In this document: piece after piece, positions 17,409 to 29,050 of the stretch
Layout: every line of letters begins with the position of its first letter
Numbering within the stretch: position 1 is the stretch's first letter
Origin: an uncultured Synergistales bacterium
Lineage (GTDB): Bacteria > Synergistota > Synergistia > Synergistales > Aminobacteriaceae
Direction of reading: 5' to 3'
Assembly: GCA_905233525.1 (NCBI GenBank)
Contig: CAJOEW010000001.1
Location: forward strand, 1 to 53,779
DNA: 53,779 nucleotides
The notes under the pieces: generated by a model
What the model saw: only the letters and a program-made list of their open reading frames with translations
Databases searched by the model: none
Told to the model about the DNA's origin: nothing
Translations under genes and position numbers: made by a program

Positions 17409-19562
17409 ATGTTAAAAAATATGAAGATAACAGGTAAACTCGGCGTAGGTTTCGGGCTTGTGCTTGCGTTATTCGGTGTAGCGGTCTTTATGAGCTGGAT
17501 GAGTATATCAGCAGTTCAAGAGGACGTTAAATTTTTGGAAGGTGTAGCCGGCGCTCTTGATCTTGCTATAGACATGAACACGACTACCAGAGCAATCCGT
17601 TCGCATGTCCGCAATTTGAATTTCTTTGAACTTGAAGAAGATATAACCGGCACTCAAAAACAGGTCGAAACACTCAGAGCACAACTCGAGCGCGGTAAAA
17701 AAATGCTTGCTGACAATCCTAGCTTAACGTCATTGAACACGCTGCCGGAAATGGAATCGATCTTACGCACAAGTTACGCTAATTTTGAAAAAACGGCCGC
17801 ATTAATTAAAAATAAAAAGGCTGTCGTTACAAAACTTTCAGAACAGACATCAAGCTTAATTGAACTTATAGGAGACGTTATAAACTTACAGTATCAAACG
17901 ACTTTACAGGAATTACGCTCAAGCGGCGGCGGCAATGAAGTCCAGGCATCGATCAACAGAATCAGAACAGCCGAAGAATTGCGCGAGAAATTATATATTG
18001 CCGCAAGAATGTATGCTCAGGCAGTTGCAGCACGTGATACAAAAATGTTAAACGACGTTTTAAATTTACTTGTTGATCTTGAAGCTCGTTATACAAGATT
18101 CGCTGATATCACGAGATTTCCAGCTGTTAAAGAAAAATTAAATTCAGGCCGTTCCACGTTTAATGTATTTAAATCCGGTTTCTCTGATGTTCTTACTGCG
18201 TTCACAGCCGGTCAAGACATGTTCGTCGGATTATTGAATGACTGCGAAAATTTAGGCAAATGCATTGAACAGATTGAAGACACAGCGATTAAACGTGTTA
18301 TGGGATTTGCGAAGGCTGACCAGGAAGCTTTAGGAAGATCAATTATGTTAATGATCGCTCTTGCTGTTGCTTCGATTGTATTTGGACTTGGTATGGCGCT
18401 TATAATTGCACGTTCGATTTCTTCACCGTTAAGCCGTGTTGTTGAGCTTGTCGGAAATGCCCGCGACGGTGATTTAACGATTGAGCGCGCAGATTTCCAT
18501 TATGAAGGCCATGACGAACTCGGAGATTTAGGCGATGCTTTATCAGAAATGTTCTTGTCATTACGCAGTTCAATGGGCGATATCTTAACAACAGCTAACA
18601 CAAGTACAGATAATGCGACGGCCATGGGTGACGATGCAGGCAAAAACCTTGAATACGCTAATAACGTCCGCTCGTCTGTTGCTCAAGTCGTTAAGCTCAT
18701 GGAGTCGAATTCGTCATCATTACAGCAAAGTAACGCCGGTACAGAGGAAATGTCAGCGGCTTCAATGACATCGGCTCAGGCTGCTACAGATTGCGCTGAA
18801 TTTATTTCAAATATGACTCAGGTTGCAGGCAAAGCTGTTGAAATGCTTACCGAGACAATGACGAATATGGACACGTTACAGCAAAAAACTCAGGAGAGCG
18901 GCGCAAAAATTCAAGAGCTTGTCGAATCCGTAAACAAGATCGGCGAGATCATTGGCGATATTACATCAATAGCTGATCAAACGAACTTATTAGCACTCAA
19001 CGCTGCTATCGAGGCTGCCAGAGCTGGTGAAGCAGGACGCGGATTTGCAGTCGTTGCCGAATCTGTAAGAAAATTAGCAGAAGAATCAAGCCGTGCAGCT
19101 GAAAATGTCCGTGGTTTAATCGAAGCCCTTCAAACAAATGCCAGGGCAACAAAGACATCAAGTGAAGAAACTTCAGTATTACTTGATCAGACAACAGAAA
19201 AAGCTAAAGAATCAAAAGATTCGTTATCTGAGGCCATGAACCAGATCGATAAGGCTAATGACAGAATTCAGAATATCGCGGCCGTTGCAGAAGAACAAGC
19301 AGCTTCAAGCCGTGAGATCGCAGCCGGTATCGATAACGTAACAAAAGCCACGACGGAAATTTTAGAGAACCTCGAAAGTATTAAATCTAACATGGATGAA
19401 ACGGCTTCAATTGCTGAACGCGCTGCAAAAGGTGCAAAAAATCAGGAAAATTTAGTACAGCACATGCGCGACTCGTTAGCACAGTTCAAAGTCGAATCCG
19501 ATAATCCTACGTTAGCAAGAGGTCGCAGAGCAGCAGCCTTACCAACAGCTAAAAAGCGTTAG
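17409..19562 (+). CDS. Methyl-accepting chemotaxis protein
   Basis: A 717-residue transmembrane receptor. TM1 is at about 12-34, then a helical periplasmic sensor of about 270 residues (four-helix-bundle-like, sugar or amino-acid ligand unknown), TM2 at about 308-335, a HAMP domain, and a long cytoplasmic coiled coil with the hairpin tip [20 protein letters not shown], which binds CheA/CheW. There is no C-terminal CheR-docking pentapeptide; the tail is basic. AGGAGG lies about 14 bases before the ATG. No sigma-28 promoter was seen upstream, unlike fliS. It supports a motile cell together with fliS. The ligand cannot be inferred. Confidence 0.93.
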
Positions 19563-20802: not shown

Positions 20803-20956
20803 CTGAACAACACTCCTTGAAATTTTTTTTATGATTTTCAGCAAGTATAACAAACACCCTTGAAAATTCACCCGTAAAAATCAAAGATTTGTGCAATGTG
20901 AAAAATCAAGAACGCTTTTATAATTTTCAAGTCATAAATTTTTATAGGAGGTGCAT

Positions 20957-21994
20957 TTGATTTTGAGAGCAGGAAAATTTTTTACACTCGCTGCCGCTAT
21001 GAGCATAGCCGTAATTTTTTTTAATGCTGATATTTCACAGGCGGCACGAGCAAGAAGAAATCAAAGCTATATAAATCATACACCGGAAATTTTAAAACAG
21101 GATAATAATATTTACAGCTTACAGCCTCAATTTTCACCATATAGAGCCGGAATTGTCAGACAAGATGTTTTAAATAATGCCTTGAATGAATTAAATTATA
21201 TCCGCAGAATCGCAGGTGTGCCGTCAAATGTCATGTTAAGCAGCGAATTAAATGAGCTTTCACAACATGGCGCAGTGCTGCTTGACTCTATAGACACTCT
21301 AACTCATACACCGTATCAGCCTCACGACATGCCGGACAATTTTTTTAACAAAGGCTATCAGGCTACGTCTCATGGTAATGTTCACGTCGGAAAAATATAT
21401 TACGGAGATAAAATGTACGGTAATTCTTCACTCTCAAAAACTTTGCTCGATTATGTAACCGATGACGAGTCAAATATTCCGACAGTTGGGCACCGCCGTT
21501 GGATGTTGAATCCAAGATTAAAATATACAGGCTTCGGAATTTCTACGAGGCGCGGCTATTCTGTAATGTACGTCATAGATGAATATAAAGATTATAATAC
21601 TTATATTAAAAATATGGCTTGGCCTATACGTGATGAATTTATTTCATGGCCTGCAAAAAATAATAATCACCCTGTTAAATATTTTCCTGACAGCGCACCA
21701 TGGTCAGTCACGTTAAATAATACAATCTTTGAAAAATGCGATGACGATCAGGTAAAAGTTAAATTAACACGCGTAAATGACGGCCGTACATGGAAATTTA
21801 GCTACGACGGACGCAGCGACGGATATTTTAATATCAGCCATGAGGCTTACGCTTGGGACGAATGCATAATTTTTAAGCCTGATGATTTCGGAGGTTACAG
21901 AGCCGGTCAACGTTGGCAGGTCGAAATAACAGGCTTGCGCAAAAAAAACGGCTCGAACGTAAGAATTTTTTATACGACAGATTTTATAAACTAA
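20957..21994 (+). CDS. Exported CAP/SCP-domain protein
   Basis: A 345-residue protein with a signal peptide (about to the SQAARA segment) and a CAP (SCP/PR-1) domain at about 65-195: helix ALNELNYIRRIAGV, a His in SQHGAVL, then VGHRRWMLNPRLKYTGFG, which carries the conserved His and the strand end. The C-terminal third is beta-rich and unassigned. CAP proteins in bacteria are secreted or surface-attached and mostly uncharacterised. Start: AGGAGG (20946-20951) favours TTG 20957, with TTG 20963 as alternative; the GTG at 20951 overlaps the ribosome site. Divergent from the flavoprotein gene. Confidence 0.8.
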   Translation: MILRAGKFFTLAAAMSIAVIFFNADISQAARARRNQSYINHTPEILKQDNNIYSLQPQFSPYRAGIVRQDVLNNALNELNYIRRIAGVPSNVMLSSELNELSQHGAVLLDSIDTLTHTPYQPHDMPDNFFNKGYQATSHGNVHVGKIYYGDKMYGNSSLSKTLLDYVTDDESNIPTVGHRRWMLNPRLKYTGFGISTRRGYSVMYVIDEYKDYNTYIKNMAWPIRDEFISWPAKNNNHPVKYFPDSAPWSVTLNNTIFEKCDDDQVKVKLTRVNDGRTWKFSYDGRSDGYFNISHEAYAWDECIIFKPDDFGGYRAGQRWQVEITGLRKKNGSNVRIFYTTDFIN

Positions 21995-22059: not shown

Positions 22060-23079
22060 GTGAAGAAGTTTTTATTATGTTTAATGGTTTTATGCGCTGT
22101 TATGGTGTCTGTGTCATGGGCGAAAGATGTAAGCGATATTGTCGTTGGTGCTTGCATTTACAAATATGATGACACGTTTATGACCGGTGTACGTAATGCC
22201 ATGATAGCCGAAATGGAAAAGCAGGGCGGTAAGCTTCAGGTCGTTAACTCGCAAAACAAACAGACGATCCAAACCGATCAGGTCGATGCTTACATAACAG
22301 AAGAGGTTGACGCGCTTATCGTTAATCCCGTCGACAGAACAGCATCAGAGCCTTTAATGAGCAAAGCTAAAGAAGCTGACATACCGATCATTTTTGTTAA
22401 CCGTGAACCTTACGCCGATGTTATGAACGCATATGATCGTATATGGTACGTCGGAGCTAAGGCTGAAGAATCCGGTACACAGTCAGGAGAATTGATCGCT
22501 GAGTATTTCAAAGCACACCCTGAAGCAGATAAAAACCATGACGGCAAAATTCAGTACATCATGTTACGCGGCGAACAAGGACATCAAGACGCTGTATTAC
22601 GTACGGATTATTCGATTAAGGCCATGAAAGACGCAGGCTTCGAAATTGTAGAACTCGGAAGCGACACAGCAAACTGGAGTAAAGTTCAGGCTACCGATAA
22701 AATGACGGCGTTTATTTCTGAACATGGCGTTGATAATATTGAGGCCGTATTAGCAAATAATGACGACATGGCACTCGGTGCAATTGAGGCGTTAAATGCT
22801 CAAGGTTATAACGCAGGCGATCCGGCTAGATATATTCCTGTCGTTGGCGTTGACGCTACAGCACCGGCTCTTGAAGCTATGAAGAACGGCGCAATGCTCG
22901 GAACAGTTTTAAACGATGCCGACAACCAGGGAATCGCCTCGATAAAAATAGCAGTTGTTGCAGCAGCAGGCGGCGAAGTTAATGAGGAAACAATAGGCTA
23001 TAAAATTACTGACGGTAAATATATTTGGATACCGTACAGAAAAGTAACTACTGAAAATTATCAGCAGTTCATAAAATAA
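22060..23079 (+). CDS. mglB: Galactose/glucose-binding periplasmic protein, canonical copy (MglB1)
   Basis: The substrate-binding protein of an Mgl-type ABC importer. Signal peptide about 1-21. All residues that contact sugar in E. coli MglB are kept: D14 (KYDD), N91 (FVNREP), H152/D154/R158 (GHQDAVLR), W183 (ANW), N211 (ANND), D236 (GVDA) and N256 (LND). The calcium loop DKNHDGKIQ is also intact. It should therefore bind galactose or glucose. Start: GTG 22060 has AGGAGG 9 bases upstream. It is the first gene of the operon, and a hairpin terminator follows it, so it may be expressed above the genes downstream. Confidence 0.93.
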   Translation: MKKFLLCLMVLCAVMVSVSWAKDVSDIVVGACIYKYDDTFMTGVRNAMIAEMEKQGGKLQVVNSQNKQTIQTDQVDAYITEEVDALIVNPVDRTASEPLMSKAKEADIPIIFVNREPYADVMNAYDRIWYVGAKAEESGTQSGELIAEYFKAHPEADKNHDGKIQYIMLRGEQGHQDAVLRTDYSIKAMKDAGFEIVELGSDTANWSKVQATDKMTAFISEHGVDNIEAVLANNDDMALGAIEALNAQGYNAGDPARYIPVVGVDATAPALEAMKNGAMLGTVLNDADNQGIASIKIAVVAAAGGEVNEETIGYKITDGKYIWIPYRKVTTENYQQFIK

Positions 23080-23093
23080 AATTGTCCGCAAAT

Positions 23094-23137
23094 CTCCCTG
23101 TTGAGCAAATTTACGCAGGGAGGTTTTTATTTTTTTC
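23094..23137 (+). terminator. Internal terminator/attenuator between mglB1 and mglB2
   Basis: CTCCCTG (23094-23100) pairs with CAGGGAG (23116-23122), then TTTTTATTTTTTT. Downstream genes have no separate promoter that I could see, so partial read-through is likely and would set the ratio of binding protein to transporter. Confidence 0.65.
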
Positions 23138-23169
23138 GCGCTCACGAATTCAAGGAAGGATTGATTATT

Positions 23170-24186
23170 TTGCGAAGACATTTATTTACAGCAGTACTTT
23201 TTATTTTTATGTTATCTGCCGGCACCGCTCACTCCGAAGATATAAAAATAGGCTTGAATATATATTCATTCGAAGACATGTTTTTAAAGCGTTATAGAGA
23301 TGCTCTTACTTTTGAAGCATGGAAACACGGAGTCAAGTTTTTTGCGGCGGATGCTAATAAATCACAGCGTAAACAGAATAATCAAGTGAGCGAATTTATT
23401 GCTACACATGTTAACGCTTTAATAATAAGTCCTGTTGACCGCAATGATGTAGGCGATTTGATTAATAGGGCTAAACGTGCTTTTATACCTTTAGTATTTA
23501 TTAACAGAGAACCGCCTAAAGAATTTCTTGATCAATATAAAAAATCCTGGTACGTAGGCTCAGACACTTCAGGCGCTGGAACAATTGCAGGAGGAATTTT
23601 AGCTGATTATTTCAAAAATCATCCTGAAGCAGATAAAAATCATGACGGCAAAACTCAGTACGTTATCTTAAAGGGCGAAAAGAGTCATCAAGACACGCAA
23701 ATCGTAACAGAACGCACACTCAAAGCTCTTACGGACGCAGGTTTTGAACTCGATGAGCTTTCAGGAGATTACGCTGACTGGCAAAAATTTAAAGCAGTTG
23801 TAAAAATGCAAGGTTTCATATATCTTGCACGCGGTGTTGAAAATATTGAGGCCATAATTGCAAATAACGACGAAATGGCGCTCGGTGCACTTATGGCTAT
23901 AAAGATTCATAAATATAATTCCGGCGATCCTGAAAAATTTATACCGATCGTAGGCATTGACGGAAATACAGAAGCGCTCGAAGCTATATCTAAAAATGAG
24001 ATTATCGGCACTGTTTTAAATGACGCTGAAACACAGGCCGCCGCAGCTATGAGCATTGCTGTAGAAGCCTCAAAAGGACATGAAATAAACGAAGAAAATA
24101 TAGGCTTTAACATTATTGACGGTAAATATATTAGAGTGCCATGCAAAAAAATCACGCATGAAAATTATAAGGAATTTCTAAAATGA
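23170..24186 (+). CDS. MglB paralogue 2, altered sugar pocket
   Basis: A periplasmic sugar-binding protein related to MglB1 along its whole length, with a signal peptide ending THS-E. Pocket: D14 (FED), N91 (FINREP), H152 and D154 (SHQD), W183, N211 (ANND), D236 and N256 (LND) are kept, but the Arg that contacts the sugar (R158) is Val (DTQIV). The calcium loop is intact apart from Ile to Thr. A related but different monosaccharide is likely. Start: TTG 23170, about 10 bases after AAGGAAGGA; frames further upstream run through the terminator. It overlaps mglB3 by 4 bases (ATGA). Confidence 0.85.
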   Translation: MRRHLFTAVLFIFMLSAGTAHSEDIKIGLNIYSFEDMFLKRYRDALTFEAWKHGVKFFAADANKSQRKQNNQVSEFIATHVNALIISPVDRNDVGDLINRAKRAFIPLVFINREPPKEFLDQYKKSWYVGSDTSGAGTIAGGILADYFKNHPEADKNHDGKTQYVILKGEKSHQDTQIVTERTLKALTDAGFELDELSGDYADWQKFKAVVKMQGFIYLARGVENIEAIIANNDEMALGALMAIKIHKYNSGDPEKFIPIVGIDGNTEALEAISKNEIIGTVLNDAETQAAAAMSIAVEASKGHEINEENIGFNIIDGKYIRVPCKKITHENYKEFLK

Positions 24187-25190
24187 AAATATATAAAAAA
24201 TTTTTAACAACGCTCGTAATTTTTTTAATATGCTCCGGAATTTCTTACGCTGACGATGTAAAAATTGGTGTCAGTCTTGAGACGTTTAATATTGATTTTG
24301 TAGTGCGTTATAAAGATGCTATGACACGTGAGGCCGCAAGATTAGGAGCTAAATTTGTTGTAACCGATGCCGAAAATTCACAGCGTAAAGAAAAAGGCCG
24401 CGTTGATGAATTGATTTCATCAAATGTAGATGTTTTACTTGTGAGTCCGTCTGATAGATTCAAAGTCGATGATTTAATTAAAAAGGCTAAAAGCGCTAAT
24501 ATCCCTATAGTTTTTATAATACGCCAGCCGTTACCTGAAGCTATAGCAAAATATGATAAAGCCTGGTACATCGGGACAAATTCATCAGAATCAGGACGTA
24601 TGCAGGGCGAGATCATGGCTGATTATTTGAAAGCACATCCTGAAGCAGATAAAAATCATGACGGCAAAATTCAATACGTGATCATTCAAGGTCAGGAAGT
24701 TCATCAAGATACAAAGCCGCGTGCAGAATTTGCTGTGAAAGCTCTGAAAGATGCAGGTTTCGAACTTGACGAACTCGCTCACGATGTATATACGAACTGG
24801 CAGCGCGATAATGTAATACAGGTAACAAACGAGCTTTTAAAAAATATTGATGTCGAAAAAATTGAGGCCGTTTTTGCACATAGCGAAGAAATAGGCTTAG
24901 GAGTGATACACGTTCTTAAATCAAAAGGCTATAACACAGGCGATAAAAATAAATTTATTCCGATTGTCTGTGTTGACGGCAGCAAAGAAGGACTACAGGC
25001 CATGGCAAATAATGAAATTATAGGGACTGTTTTGCACGACGCTGAGACATTAGGATCGACCGCTGTAAAATTTGCTGTAGCCGTATCAGAAAAAAAGCAG
25101 CTTAAATATTTTAATATCGATGATCGCAAATTTATTACAGTGCCGTATAAAAAAATAACGCCTGAACATTATCAGGAATACGTTAAATAA
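24183..25190 (+). CDS. MglB paralogue 3, strongly remodelled sugar pocket
   Basis: The same fold and signal peptide class (cleavage about SYA-D), with the calcium loop DKNHDGKIQ intact. Many pocket residues are changed against E. coli MglB: D14 to Ile by direct alignment (FNIDF), N91 to Ile (FIIRQP), N211 lost (AHSEE for ANNDE), N256 to His (VLHD). H152, D154, R158, W183 and D236 remain. With four of nine contacts gone it is unlikely to bind galactose in the same way; a different ligand or a sensory or partner role is possible. ATG overlaps the mglB2 stop (ATGA). Confidence 0.85.
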   Translation: MKIYKKFLTTLVIFLICSGISYADDVKIGVSLETFNIDFVVRYKDAMTREAARLGAKFVVTDAENSQRKEKGRVDELISSNVDVLLVSPSDRFKVDDLIKKAKSANIPIVFIIRQPLPEAIAKYDKAWYIGTNSSESGRMQGEIMADYLKAHPEADKNHDGKIQYVIIQGQEVHQDTKPRAEFAVKALKDAGFELDELAHDVYTNWQRDNVIQVTNELLKNIDVEKIEAVFAHSEEIGLGVIHVLKSKGYNTGDKNKFIPIVCVDGSKEGLQAMANNEIIGTVLHDAETLGSTAVKFAVAVSEKKQLKYFNIDDRKFITVPYKKITPEHYQEYVK

Positions 25191-25209
25191 ATTTTTGGAG
25201 GTGTTTTTT

Positions 25210-26208
25210 TTGCGTAAGTATTTTTTTGTTGCAGTTCTGTTATTTTCGGTGATGTTTACTGGAATTTCAGACGCAGGCGAATTAAAGATCGGTTCATGTA
25301 TTTATACGTTCAATGATGCTTTTATGACGCGTTATAGAAATGCTATGGCTGACGAAGCTAAAAAAGCAGGCGTTGAATTGCAGATCATGGACTCTCAAAA
25401 TTCGCAGTCTTTGCAGGATGAACAGGTTGATGAACTAATTGAGGCCGGTTTGAACGTTTTGATCTTAAATCCTGTTGATCGTATGGAAGCCGGAAATTTG
25501 ATCGAGAAGGCTAAAGCTGCAAATATACCGGTAGTTTTTATTAACAGACAGCCTGTAGCGGAAGTTTTGTCAAATTATGACAGGGCGTTTTACGTTGGAT
25601 CGCTAGCTGAAGAATCAGGGCGCTTTTCAGGTGAAATTATAGTCGATTATTTCAAAGCTCATCCGGAAGCAGATAAAGATCATAACGGTAAAATCGAGTT
25701 TATCATGCTCAAAGGCGAAAACGGACATCAAGATATGATCGCCCGCTCAAAATATTCTGTTGAAGCTATCGAGAAGAGCGGAATTTTTAAACCTGTTGAG
25801 CTTGGAAGCGCGTTAGCTAACTGGGATAAATTCATGGCTATGACGATCATGAATGCTTTTATTATGTCAATTGGGACAGATGAGATCGAAGCCGTTATCG
25901 CAAATAATGATGAAATGGCGCTCGGTGCTGTTGAAGCTTTAAAAGCTAATGATTTTAATACAGGCGATCCTGAAAAATTTATTCCTGTTGTCGGTGTTGA
26001 CGGTAACCCAGCTGCTATTGAGGCCATGAAGAATCATGAGATAATCGGAACAGTTTTGCAGGACGCTGAAACATGCGGATCTGTAGCTGTTAAATTAGCG
26101 GTAGCATTAGCCCAAAATAAAACGCCTGATAAAAATATTACAGGTTATGAATTGATTGACGGCAGATATTTTTGGATACCTTACAAGAAAAAAACGGAAG
26201 GAGAATAA
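25210..26208 (+). CDS. MglB paralogue 4
   Basis: Sugar-binding protein with a signal peptide (to about SDA-G). D14 (FND), N91 (FINRQP), H152/D154/R158 (GHQDMIAR), W183, N211 (ANND) and D236 are kept; N256 is Gln (VLQD). The calcium loop reads DKDHNGKIE, with D138 to Asn and Q142 to Glu, so calcium affinity may differ. Probably still a galactose/glucose-type binder. Start: TTG 25210, six bases after GGAGGTG (25197-25203). It lies 6 bases ahead of mglA. Confidence 0.87.
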   Translation: MRKYFFVAVLLFSVMFTGISDAGELKIGSCIYTFNDAFMTRYRNAMADEAKKAGVELQIMDSQNSQSLQDEQVDELIEAGLNVLILNPVDRMEAGNLIEKAKAANIPVVFINRQPVAEVLSNYDRAFYVGSLAEESGRFSGEIIVDYFKAHPEADKDHNGKIEFIMLKGENGHQDMIARSKYSVEAIEKSGIFKPVELGSALANWDKFMAMTIMNAFIMSIGTDEIEAVIANNDEMALGAVEALKANDFNTGDPEKFIPVVGVDGNPAAIEAMKNHEIIGTVLQDAETCGSVAVKLAVALAQNKTPDKNITGYELIDGRYFWIPYKKKTEGE

Positions 26209-26214
26209 TTTAAC

Positions 26215-27732
26215 GTGAGCGAATATTTACTCGAAATGCGTAATATTACAAAGACATTTCCAGGCGTTAAAGCTCTCGATAACGTTCAGCTCAATGTCCG
26301 TGCCGGAACTGTCCACGCTCTCATGGGTGAAAACGGCGCAGGTAAATCAACGTTAATGAAATGTCTATTCGGAATTTATAAGCCTGACGGCGGAGAAATA
26401 TTACTCAATGGCAAACCTGTTAATATCCGTTCGGCTCGCGATGCTATGGATCACGGTATAGCAATGATTCATCAGGAATTACATCCGATAAGATTCAGAT
26501 CAGTAATGGAAAATGTATGGCTCGGAAGATTCCCTGGACATTTTGGAGTCGTTGATCACAAAGCTATGTACGATAAGACTAAAGCTTTATTTGATGATCT
26601 TGAGCTTGATGTCGATCCTTTAGCTATGGCCGGTGAACAATCTGCTGCTATTCTTCAAATGATGGAGATCGCACGCGCCGTAAGTATCAATGCGAAAATT
26701 ATTATCATGGATGAGCCTACGTCTTCATTGTCTGATCGTGAAGTTGAACATCTTTTTAAAATCATTAACAGGTTACGCGCTCAAGGTGTTGCTATGATTT
26801 ACATATCGCATAAAATGAAAGAGATCCTCGAAATTTCTGATGAAGTATCAATCATGCGCGATGGAACATACGTAGGAACATGGCCGGCTGTAGGTTTAAC
26901 GACAGAAGAAATTATCAAACAAATGGTCGGACGCGAAATGACGAATCAATTTCCGCCGCGTGTTGGTAAACCTTCTGATGAAGTCGTTTTGAAAGTCGAG
27001 CATTTATATTCAACTGATAAGCATTCATTTAAAGACGTGTCGTTCGAGCTTCATAAAGGCGAAATTTTAGGAATAGGCGGACTTGTTGGAGCACAGCGCA
27101 CGGAATTTGTAGAGGCTTTATTCGGTTTGCGCGGTATAGAGTCCGGAACTGTTGATAAGGACGGAAAAATTTACAAGGCAAAATCTCCACGCGATGCAAA
27201 ATCTCACGGATTAGCATTATTAACAGAAGAGAGACGGGCGACCGGAATTTTTGGTATATTGCCGATTCTTGAAAATGCCGTAATAGCTAATCAAAAAAAT
27301 TACGCGAGCTTAGGAATATTGAACGATGCAAAACGTGAACGCGATGCCGCAAGCTCATGTAAAGAATTAAATGTAAAAGCACCGTCATTAGAAACGCTGA
27401 TTCAAAATTTATCCGGCGGAAATCAGCAAAAGGTTTTAATCGCGCGCTGGCTGTTAACAAATTCAGATATATTGATTCTTGACGAACCTACACGCGGAAT
27501 TGATGTAGGTGCTAAGTATGAAATTTATAATATTATGCTTGGCCAGATCGCTCAGAATAAATCTATTATCATGATATCGTCCGAAATGCCTGAACTAATG
27601 GGAATGTCCGATCGTATTATGGTAATGTGTGAAGGACGCGTAACAGGTTTCTTGAATAAAGATCAATTCTCGCAAGAAGAGATCATGAGACTCGCAACAA
27701 TGTTCGCCGGTCATAAAAAGACTGCTGCATAA
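26215..27732 (+). CDS. mglA: Galactose/methyl-galactoside ABC importer ATPase
   Basis: A 505-residue fused double ATPase of the sugar ABC class. NBD1 has Walker A GENGAGKS and Walker B IIIMDEPTSSLS; NBD2 has LSGGNQQKVLIARWL and LILDEPTRGIDVG. As in other MglA/RbsA/XylG proteins, the second half lacks a classical Walker A and the protein drives one permease homodimer. GTG start with GGAAGGAG upstream, 6 bases after mglB4. It serves all four upstream binding proteins, as no second ATPase is present. Confidence 0.94.
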   Translation: MSEYLLEMRNITKTFPGVKALDNVQLNVRAGTVHALMGENGAGKSTLMKCLFGIYKPDGGEILLNGKPVNIRSARDAMDHGIAMIHQELHPIRFRSVMENVWLGRFPGHFGVVDHKAMYDKTKALFDDLELDVDPLAMAGEQSAAILQMMEIARAVSINAKIIIMDEPTSSLSDREVEHLFKIINRLRAQGVAMIYISHKMKEILEISDEVSIMRDGTYVGTWPAVGLTTEEIIKQMVGREMTNQFPPRVGKPSDEVVLKVEHLYSTDKHSFKDVSFELHKGEILGIGGLVGAQRTEFVEALFGLRGIESGTVDKDGKIYKAKSPRDAKSHGLALLTEERRATGIFGILPILENAVIANQKNYASLGILNDAKRERDAASSCKELNVKAPSLETLIQNLSGGNQQKVLIARWLLTNSDILILDEPTRGIDVGAKYEIYNIMLGQIAQNKSIIMISSEMPELMGMSDRIMVMCEGRVTGFLNKDQFSQEEIMRLATMFAGHKKTAA

Positions 27733-27760: not shown

Positions 27761-29050
27761 ATGTCAAAAAATGTATCGCGCTCAACGTTTAATAATTACT
27801 TTAAGATTTCCGGCTTAATACTTTTAATTGCCGGTATAGTTTTAAAATACATGTCGACGCTCGAAAGTTTTAAGGGCAAAACAGCATCATGGAACATTAA
27901 CGCCTCAATTTATGACTTGCCGATATTTTTAGCGGTCATCGGAATATTTTTATTACTGAAAGGTCTCATGGCCAAATCCGAAGGCGAAGATATTGTTTTT
28001 TCAGGTAAGAACTTCGGAGGATTCTTAACGAATAATGCAATTTTATTAGCTATGTTTGTGCTTGTTGTAATAATATGCATAAAGAATCCTAAGTTCATGC
28101 AGGTTAAAGTCGCGCTTGATATTTTGACTCAGGCATCACCAAAATTGATCATGGCGTTAGGAATTTGTTTCACGCTTTTAATCGCAGGCACGGACTTATC
28201 AGCCGGACGCATGGTAGGATTAGCTGCTGTTATCTCGGCTTCAATGCTTCAGACAGCTACATACGCTAACAGATTTTTCCCTGATATGCCTCAAGTACAG
28301 GTTTGGCTGCCGATTGTATTAGCGATTGGTGCCTGTATGTTATTCGGAGCTTTAAACGGTTTCCTTGTTGCAAAATACGATATGCACCCGTTTATAGCAA
28401 CATTGGCAACGCAGGTTATCATATTCGGAACATGTTCATTATATTTCGATATGGAACCAAACAGCTCACAGCCGATTGGAGGCGTTCGTCCTGATTTCAA
28501 AGCTATAGGCCAAATGAAATTCTTAGCCGAAAAAAGTATAAAGAACTTCACGATGAATTGGTTTGCAGACGGTAAAGGCTTCCCTGGAATTTCGATTTTG
28601 ATACCGATCGCAATAATAATCTGTGTAATAATTTGGTTCGTGCTTAATAAAACAGTGTTCGGCAAAAACGTTTATGCTATCGGCGGAAATCGTGAGGCGG
28701 CTGTTGTTGCTGGTATAAGTGTATTTAAAAACATCATGGGAATTTTCATACTTGCTTCATGTTTATACGGTATAGCAGGAGTTTTGGAAGCAGCCAGAAC
28801 AGCAGGAGCAAATAATGATTACGGTAACGGTTACGAACTTGACGCTATAGCAGCCTGTGTTGTTGGCGGTGTATCATTAAACGGCGGTGTCGGTCGAGTT
28901 CGCGGTATTATTATGGGTGTATTGATATTCGCGATAATTCAATACGGCTTGCAGTTCTTACATATATCTCCAATGTGGCAGCAGGTTATCAAAGGCGTAA
29001 TTATAGCCGTGGCTGTTGCAATAGATTTAACGAAATATCGCAGAAAGTAA
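27761..29050 (+). CDS. mglC: Galactose/methyl-galactoside ABC importer permease
   Basis: A 429-residue inner-membrane permease. The core shows ICFTLLIAGTDLSAGRMVG, a GALNGFLVAKYDMHPFIATL segment, and GNREAAVVAGISV (the ABC coupling region), all typical of MglC. It is about 90 residues longer than E. coli MglC because of an N-terminal extension with two extra hydrophobic segments (about 15-30 and 45-65). AGGAGA lies upstream of the ATG. It is the last gene of the operon and is followed by a terminator. Confidence 0.93.
   Translation: MSKNVSRSTFNNYFKISGLILLIAGIVLKYMSTLESFKGKTASWNINASIYDLPIFLAVIGIFLLLKGLMAKSEGEDIVFSGKNFGGFLTNNAILLAMFVLVVIICIKNPKFMQVKVALDILTQASPKLIMALGICFTLLIAGTDLSAGRMVGLAAVISASMLQTATYANRFFPDMPQVQVWLPIVLAIGACMLFGALNGFLVAKYDMHPFIATLATQVIIFGTCSLYFDMEPNSSQPIGGVRPDFKAIGQMKFLAEKSIKNFTMNWFADGKGFPGISILIPIAIIICVIIWFVLNKTVFGKNVYAIGGNREAAVVAGISVFKNIMGIFILASCLYGIAGVLEAARTAGANNDYGNGYELDAIAACVVGGVSLNGGVGRVRGIIMGVLIFAIIQYGLQFLHISPMWQQVIKGVIIAVAVAIDLTKYRRK

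What the first reader, a model, noticed from the sequence alone, without database searches (positions are those of the whole stretch)
22060..26208. Four tandem MglB paralogues with stepwise loss of sugar-contact residues
One MglA and one MglC are served by four adjacent binding proteins. Against the nine E. coli MglB contacts (D14, N91, H152, D154, R158, W183, N211, D236, N256), by eye: MglB1 keeps all nine; MglB2 has R158 to Val; MglB3 has lost D14, N91, N211 and N256; MglB4 has N256 to Gln and an altered calcium loop. This suggests that the set broadens the ligand range of one shared importer, and that MglB3 no longer binds galactose.
Basis: partly seen in the sequence, partly recalled or inferred. 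Interest (0 to 1): 0.65.

Follow-up and report, generated by a model that had tools for sequence, protein, structure and literature searches.

The report
Four galactose-binding proteins, one importer
An uncultured gut bacterium has four side-by-side genes for the protein that captures galactose or glucose for one shared uptake pump; one copy is standard and three have altered sugar pockets found in almost no relative, a tidy but not revolutionary case of gene duplication that may have changed what a transporter takes up.

Summary
The changes are exceptional: 50 of 50 MglBs found by pattern outside the genus, 13 of 13 found without patterns in the same order, 37 of 37 genus MglB1s and 33 of 34 genus second MglBs keep all contacts. 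The genome is a Synergistaceae MAG-like assembly.

Two corrections. The loss is not "stepwise": MglB2 and MglB3 are sisters, MglB4 is the orthologue of a genus-wide second MglB, and the changes do not nest. MglB4's "altered" calcium loop (DKDHNGKIE) is still EF-hand-like. Pocket positions did not change more often than other invariant positions (p 0.34 for MglB3), so selection for new ligands is not shown.

A missed feature: an intrinsic terminator follows mglB1 (23091-23125), with a similar hairpin in at least 20 of 31 relatives, suggesting surplus MglB1.

Best reading: MglB1 is the galactose/glucose receptor, MglB2 and MglB4 are retuned, and MglB3 is a folded GBP-like protein that probably no longer binds galactose. 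This is a new member of the known class of multi-receptor ABC importers.

The parts
22060..23079 (+). mglB1: canonical glucose/galactose-binding protein; all contacts and calcium ligands kept
   Evidence: (best solved relative 8fxu, a glucose-binding protein, E 1.1e-116)
23091..23125 (+). intrinsic terminator hairpin after mglB1 (AATCTCCCTG...CAGGGAGGTT, then TTTATTTTTTT), likely with partial read-through
   Evidence: z -2.49; -15.3 kcal/mol; coordinates; GC-rich hairpin with T run at the same place in at least 20 of 31 relatives
23170..24186 (+). mglB2: divergent paralogue, R158V; other contacts and calcium site kept
24183..25190 (+). mglB3: most divergent paralogue, D14I N91I N211S N256H plus Y10E and Q261L; calcium site kept; predicted GBP fold
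25210..26208 (+). mglB4: orthologue of the genus-wide second MglB; N256Q, Q261C, calcium loop DKDHNGKIE
26215..27732 (+). mglA: ATPase subunit
   Evidence: best NCBIfam model PRK10982 MglA, E 4.3e-206
27761..29050 (+). mglC: permease subunit
   Evidence: best NCBIfam model PRK09478 MglC, E 7.7e-108

Best explanation
This is a galactose/glucose (Mgl, CUT2-type) ABC importer whose receptor gene was amplified. MglB1 is the standard receptor and, because a terminator follows it, is probably made in excess. MglB4 descends from a second MglB that the genus already had. MglB2 and MglB3 are extra, fast-evolving copies found only in this genome. All four are exported, folded, calcium-site-bearing receptors that dock on the one MglAC. 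MglB1 delivers galactose or glucose; MglB4 (Gln at 256, as in ribose and allose receptors) and MglB2 (no Arg158) have an altered preference among related sugars; MglB3 no longer binds galactose and has a more hydrophobic pocket for another small ligand. Shown: gene order, residues, tree, predicted fold of MglB3, only one MglAC. Inferred: expression levels, docking of all four on MglAC, and every ligand.
For: Residues checked against E. coli and invariant in relatives inside and outside the genus. No other genome has a close relative of B2 (best 51% identity in 43 genus genomes) or of B3 (best 48%, its own neighbour B2, in 188 genomes of the phylum). The genus normally carries two MglBs, family members outside it one. 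Tree: B2+B3 97/92; B4 with the genus second MglB 98/93; B2, B3 and B4 as one species-specific group not rejected (p-AU 0.388). B2 and B3 are intact, with ribosome-binding sites, signal-peptide-like N termini and all calcium ligands, over a divergence at which an unconstrained frame would have gained stops. B3 model pLDDT 91.7, best solved matches all GBPs. N256 aligns with Q235 of RbsB and Q247 of AlsB. Galactokinase present.
Against: Pocket positions are not changed more often than other invariant ones, so directed change of specificity is not shown. The sister species (L071/L080, MglA 95% identical) lacks B2 and B3 and has its second mglB split over two frames, which suggests the extra receptors are dispensable. 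No ligand, expression or docking data exist. The assembly is a MAG-like set of 66 contigs and no second assembly of the species was found.
Confidence: 0.55

Rival explanations
1. Relaxed constraint: MglB1 alone does the job, and B2, B3 and B4 are redundant copies drifting in sequence while still folding, on the way to loss.
For: Pocket changes are proportional to changes at other invariant positions. B2 and B3 are absent from all relatives, and the second mglB is split in two frames in the sister species and in G012. B2 and B3 have lower GC3 than B1.
Against: Long-diverged frames remain open with translation signals, signal peptides and calcium sites. The genus-wide second MglB keeps its pocket in 33 of 34 cases.
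Confidence: 0.27
2. Dosage and kinetics: several receptors of the same ligand with different affinities, serving different sugar concentrations rather than different sugars.
For: B1 and the genus second MglB share the same pocket; the terminator would set different amounts.
Against: MglB3 has lost four contact side chains, which should abolish rather than tune galactose binding.
Confidence: 0.12
3. Some copies are sensors for chemotaxis or regulation rather than transport receptors.
For: E. coli GBP is also the ligand carrier for the Trg chemoreceptor (established knowledge). An ORF that I read by eye, without a domain search, as a methyl-accepting chemotaxis protein lies at 17409-19562.
Against: No relative of that ORF turned up in the relatives' mgl loci, and none of the ORFs examined beside the genes is a sensor kinase.
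Confidence: 0.04
4. Assembly artefact: the four genes are a chimera of strains.
For: Fragmented MAG-like assembly.
Against: The copies share only 39-51% identity, lie in frame-coupled order (B2/B3 overlap by 4 nt) inside a 95 kb contig, and no genome of the genus has B2- or B3-like genes from which a chimera could be made.
Confidence: 0.02

Closest known systems
E. coli / Salmonella MglBAC galactose-glucose importer (MglB, 2GBP)
   Same: One MglA and one MglC; MglB1 has every sugar contact and calcium ligand type; MglB3 model matches 2gbp with TM 0.90
   Different: E. coli has one mglB in this operon; here four, three with altered pockets
Thermoanaerobacterium thermosaccharolyticum glucose-binding protein (8fxu; PMC10439942)
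   Same: Closest solved relative of MglB1 and MglB3; binds glucose experimentally
   Different: Keeps all polar contacts; its Cys at position 16 is an engineered label site
ABC importers that use several receptors, e.g. Cbc for choline/betaine/carnitine (Chen et al. 2010, Mol Microbiol 75:29) and Thomas 2010 (Mol Microbiol 75:6); both seen only in the reference lists of PMC8110962 and PMC7170509
   Same: Several substrate-binding proteins with one permease
   Different: Here the receptors are tandem paralogues of a galactose receptor in one operon; sharing has not been tested
E. coli RbsB and AlsB (ribose, allose receptors)
   Same: Gln at the position equivalent to N256, as in MglB4
   Different: MglB4 keeps the GBP contacts N91, H152 and D154, which RbsB and AlsB lack

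Membership tests
MglB / glucose-galactose-binding protein (CUT2 receptor) | Best family match is MglB (NCBIfam NF011924), with Pfam Peripla_BP_4 over its cut-off | tested here: met
   True of all four proteins
MglB / glucose-galactose-binding protein (CUT2 receptor) | Score over NCBIfam's curated equivalog cut-off (420 bits) | tested here: not met
   296, 232, 176 and 268 bits for B1 to B4; the model is narrow, and even B1 falls short although its pocket is complete
MglB / glucose-galactose-binding protein (CUT2 receptor) | Polar sugar contacts D14, N91, H152, D154, R158, N211, D236, N256 and the stack F16/W183 | tested here: inconclusive
   Met by B1; one change each in B2 and B4; not met by B3, with four changes
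MglB / glucose-galactose-binding protein (CUT2 receptor) | Calcium loop 134-142 with E205 | tested here: met
   B1 to B3 have D134, N136, D138, Q142, E205; B4 has D134, D136, N138, E142, E205, still EF-hand-like
MglB / glucose-galactose-binding protein (CUT2 receptor) | GBP fold | tested here: met
   Tested for MglB3 only: AlphaFold2 pLDDT 91.7; the best solved matches are GBPs
Multi-receptor ABC importer | Several receptor genes with one permease/ATPase pair | tested here: met
   Four mglB genes before one mglA and one mglC; the only other Peripla_BP_4 protein lies beside its own permease on contig C22
Multi-receptor ABC importer | Each receptor delivers its ligand to the shared permease | not testable with these tools
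   Needs transport or ATPase assays
Multi-receptor ABC importer | Receptors differ in ligand | not testable with these tools
   Pocket residues differ; ligands unknown

The most novel reading that the evidence does not exclude
MglB3 has become a receptor for a different, more hydrophobic or deoxygenated ligand (I14, I91, S211 and H256 in place of D, N, N and N) while still docking on MglAC, so that a galactose importer has gained a new class of substrate by receptor duplication alone.
Probability: 0.22. Interest if true: 0.55.

Novelty: new member of a known kind. Interest (0 to 1): 0.33.

Why it matters
Receptors that share one permease are a known way to widen an importer's diet. Here one operon holds a conserved receptor, a genus-wide second copy and two copies unique to one species, so the effect of pocket changes on ligand and docking could be tested on very close relatives. 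It also shows that an 'MglB' annotation alone would probably assign galactose wrongly to MglB3.

Tried and rejected
A stepwise series was tested with the tree and rejected: B2 and B3 are sisters, and B4 is a separate, genus-wide lineage. Preferential change of the pocket was tested twice with Fisher tests and not found. Horizontal origin of B2/B3: no closer relative of B3 in the phylum, the genome-contig scan with B3 found nothing, and the tree puts both with the genus's own second MglB. The consensus terminator scan missed the hairpin because its loop is too long for that scan; folding and comparison with relatives recovered it. The first out-of-genus residue count (63 rows) included 13 rows from genus members and was corrected to 50; because that set was chosen by sequence patterns covering D14 or N211, a pattern-free set was added. 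A first attempt at that set read antisense frames and was redone. A Pfam scan of the chemotaxis-like ORF failed on a coordinate error and was not repeated. A search for papers naming the GBP contact residues found none, so the roles of single contacts rest on general knowledge.

Full report
What is there. Between 22060 and 26208 four complete ORFs encode periplasmic binding proteins whose best NCBIfam model is MglB. They are followed by mglA (26215-27732) and mglC (27761-29050), whose best models are also those of the Mgl system. Start codons and Shine-Dalgarno-like sequences are GTG/ggagg, TTG/aaggaagg, ATG/aagga and TTG/ggagg; mglB3 overlaps mglB2 by 4 nt. All four N termini look like Sec signal peptides (sequence, by eye).

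Residues. MglB1 keeps all contacts; MglB2 differs by R158V; MglB3 by D14I, N91I, N211S and N256H; MglB4 by N256Q. In addition MglB3 has Y10E and Q261L, and MglB4 has Q261C. The calcium loop of MglB4 is DKDHNGKIE; with E205 kept it still offers carboxylate or amide oxygens at 134, 136, 138 and 142, close to a standard EF-hand loop, so I do not read it as damage. No gap lies at the four changed MglB3 sites; a one-residue insertion precedes W183 in MglB3.

How unusual. Outside the genus, 50 full-length MglBs from 47 loci (mostly Clostridia and Succinivibrionaceae, some Synergistaceae, a few Bacilli) all keep every pocket and calcium position. That scan chose loci by patterns that cover Y10-D14 or N210-D212, so it is biased for those two sites. 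A set chosen without patterns, 13 MglBs from other genera of the order, also keeps all of them. A fourteenth, only 35% identical, is a more distant receptor and already has Gln at 256 (L184). In the genus, 37 of 37 first MglBs and 33 of 34 second MglBs keep them, the exception being N256Q in the second MglB of G004. The sister species' split second MglB (L071) also reads Gln at 256 but has the usual calcium loop (read by eye). E. coli RbsB and AlsB have Gln at the equivalent position (Q235, Q247).

Origin. The genome is 1.64 Mb in 66 contigs. The relatives that the named collection returns are mostly Synergistaceae/Synergistales MAGs from ruminant guts (the nearest is Red_deer_1_mag_77). Of 43 genus genomes 40 have MglB, and the normal state is a tandem pair. 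G025 has a third copy, G019 and G064 have only one, and members of the family outside the genus show one strong match each. Four copies in one array occur only here. In the tree first and second MglBs separate cleanly (100/94); B4 belongs with the second MglBs (98/93); B2 and B3 are sisters (97/92) on very long branches, so their exact place is less sure. A tree with B2, B3 and B4 as one species-specific group is not rejected (p-AU 0.388). The array therefore most likely grew by duplication of the second MglB. Whether this happened before or after the split from the sister species is open; that species' second MglB, in its larger piece, is 76% identical to B4 and 49% to B2. The changes do not nest (R158 is lost only in B2; position 256 is N, H and Q in B2, B3 and B4), so the title's 'stepwise loss' is wrong.

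Selection. Among 61 positions invariant in 135 reference rows (a few genomes appear twice), MglB3 changed 6 of 12 pocket positions and 17 of 49 others (p 0.34); MglB2 1/12 and 9/49; MglB4 2/12 and 6/49. Pocket change is in line with overall divergence, which neither supports nor excludes new specificity. Against simple decay stand the open frames, start signals, signal peptides and calcium ligands. AlphaFold2 gives MglB3 a confident fold (mean pLDDT 91.7, pTM 0.85) whose best solved matches are glucose/galactose-binding proteins (8fxu, 1gca, 2gbp; TM about 0.90 by target length). The model supports the fold; it does not show ligand binding.

Expression. A hairpin at 23091-23125 followed by TTTATTTTTTT lies between mglB1 and mglB2. 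In 20 of 31 relatives a GC-rich hairpin (typically CCCCCG...CGGGGG) with a T run lies between the first and the next mglB, and several more have the hairpin with a weaker T run. Its recurrence makes it a real terminator in my judgement, presumably leaky, so that MglB1 would exceed the rest.

Function. Four of the genome's five Peripla_BP_4 proteins are these; the fifth sits on contig C22 next to its own permease. A galactokinase is present, so imported galactose can probably be used. I conclude that MglB1 is the galactose/glucose receptor (its best solved relative is a glucose-binding protein), that MglB2 and MglB4 have altered preference, and that MglB3 has most likely lost galactose. Roles of single contacts and all ligands are inference from established knowledge of GBP.

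Known or new. Importers with several receptors are an established kind (references seen in PMC8110962 and PMC7170509). This is a new member, with an unusual expansion inside a galactose operon.

Noticed in passing
window 20951-21994; also L037, L041, L042, L044, L046 and others: A CAP (SCP/PR-1) domain protein lies directly upstream of mglB1 here and in most relatives of the genus; its link to the importer is unknown.
   Followed up: partly
L071:6817-7822 (same place as L080:7094-8099), L048:7528-8516, L057:8346-9382: The second mglB (L071, L048) or the first (L057) is split over two reading frames in three relatives; real loss or assembly error not decided.
   Followed up: partly
L060:5620-6666 (same place in L096): G025 carries an extra, third MglB between the usual two, with His in place of the stacking Phe16.
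   Followed up: partly
L142:4439-5470 and L158:4691-5770: Enterococcus alcedinis and Clostridium intestinale encode a second, divergent MglB-like protein next to mglB (34-37% identity to MglB1).
   Followed up: no
L055, L076: Two genus members have a single mglB directly before an mglA that is 86-87% identical to the window's, so the second MglB was either lost or never gained in that branch.
   Followed up: partly
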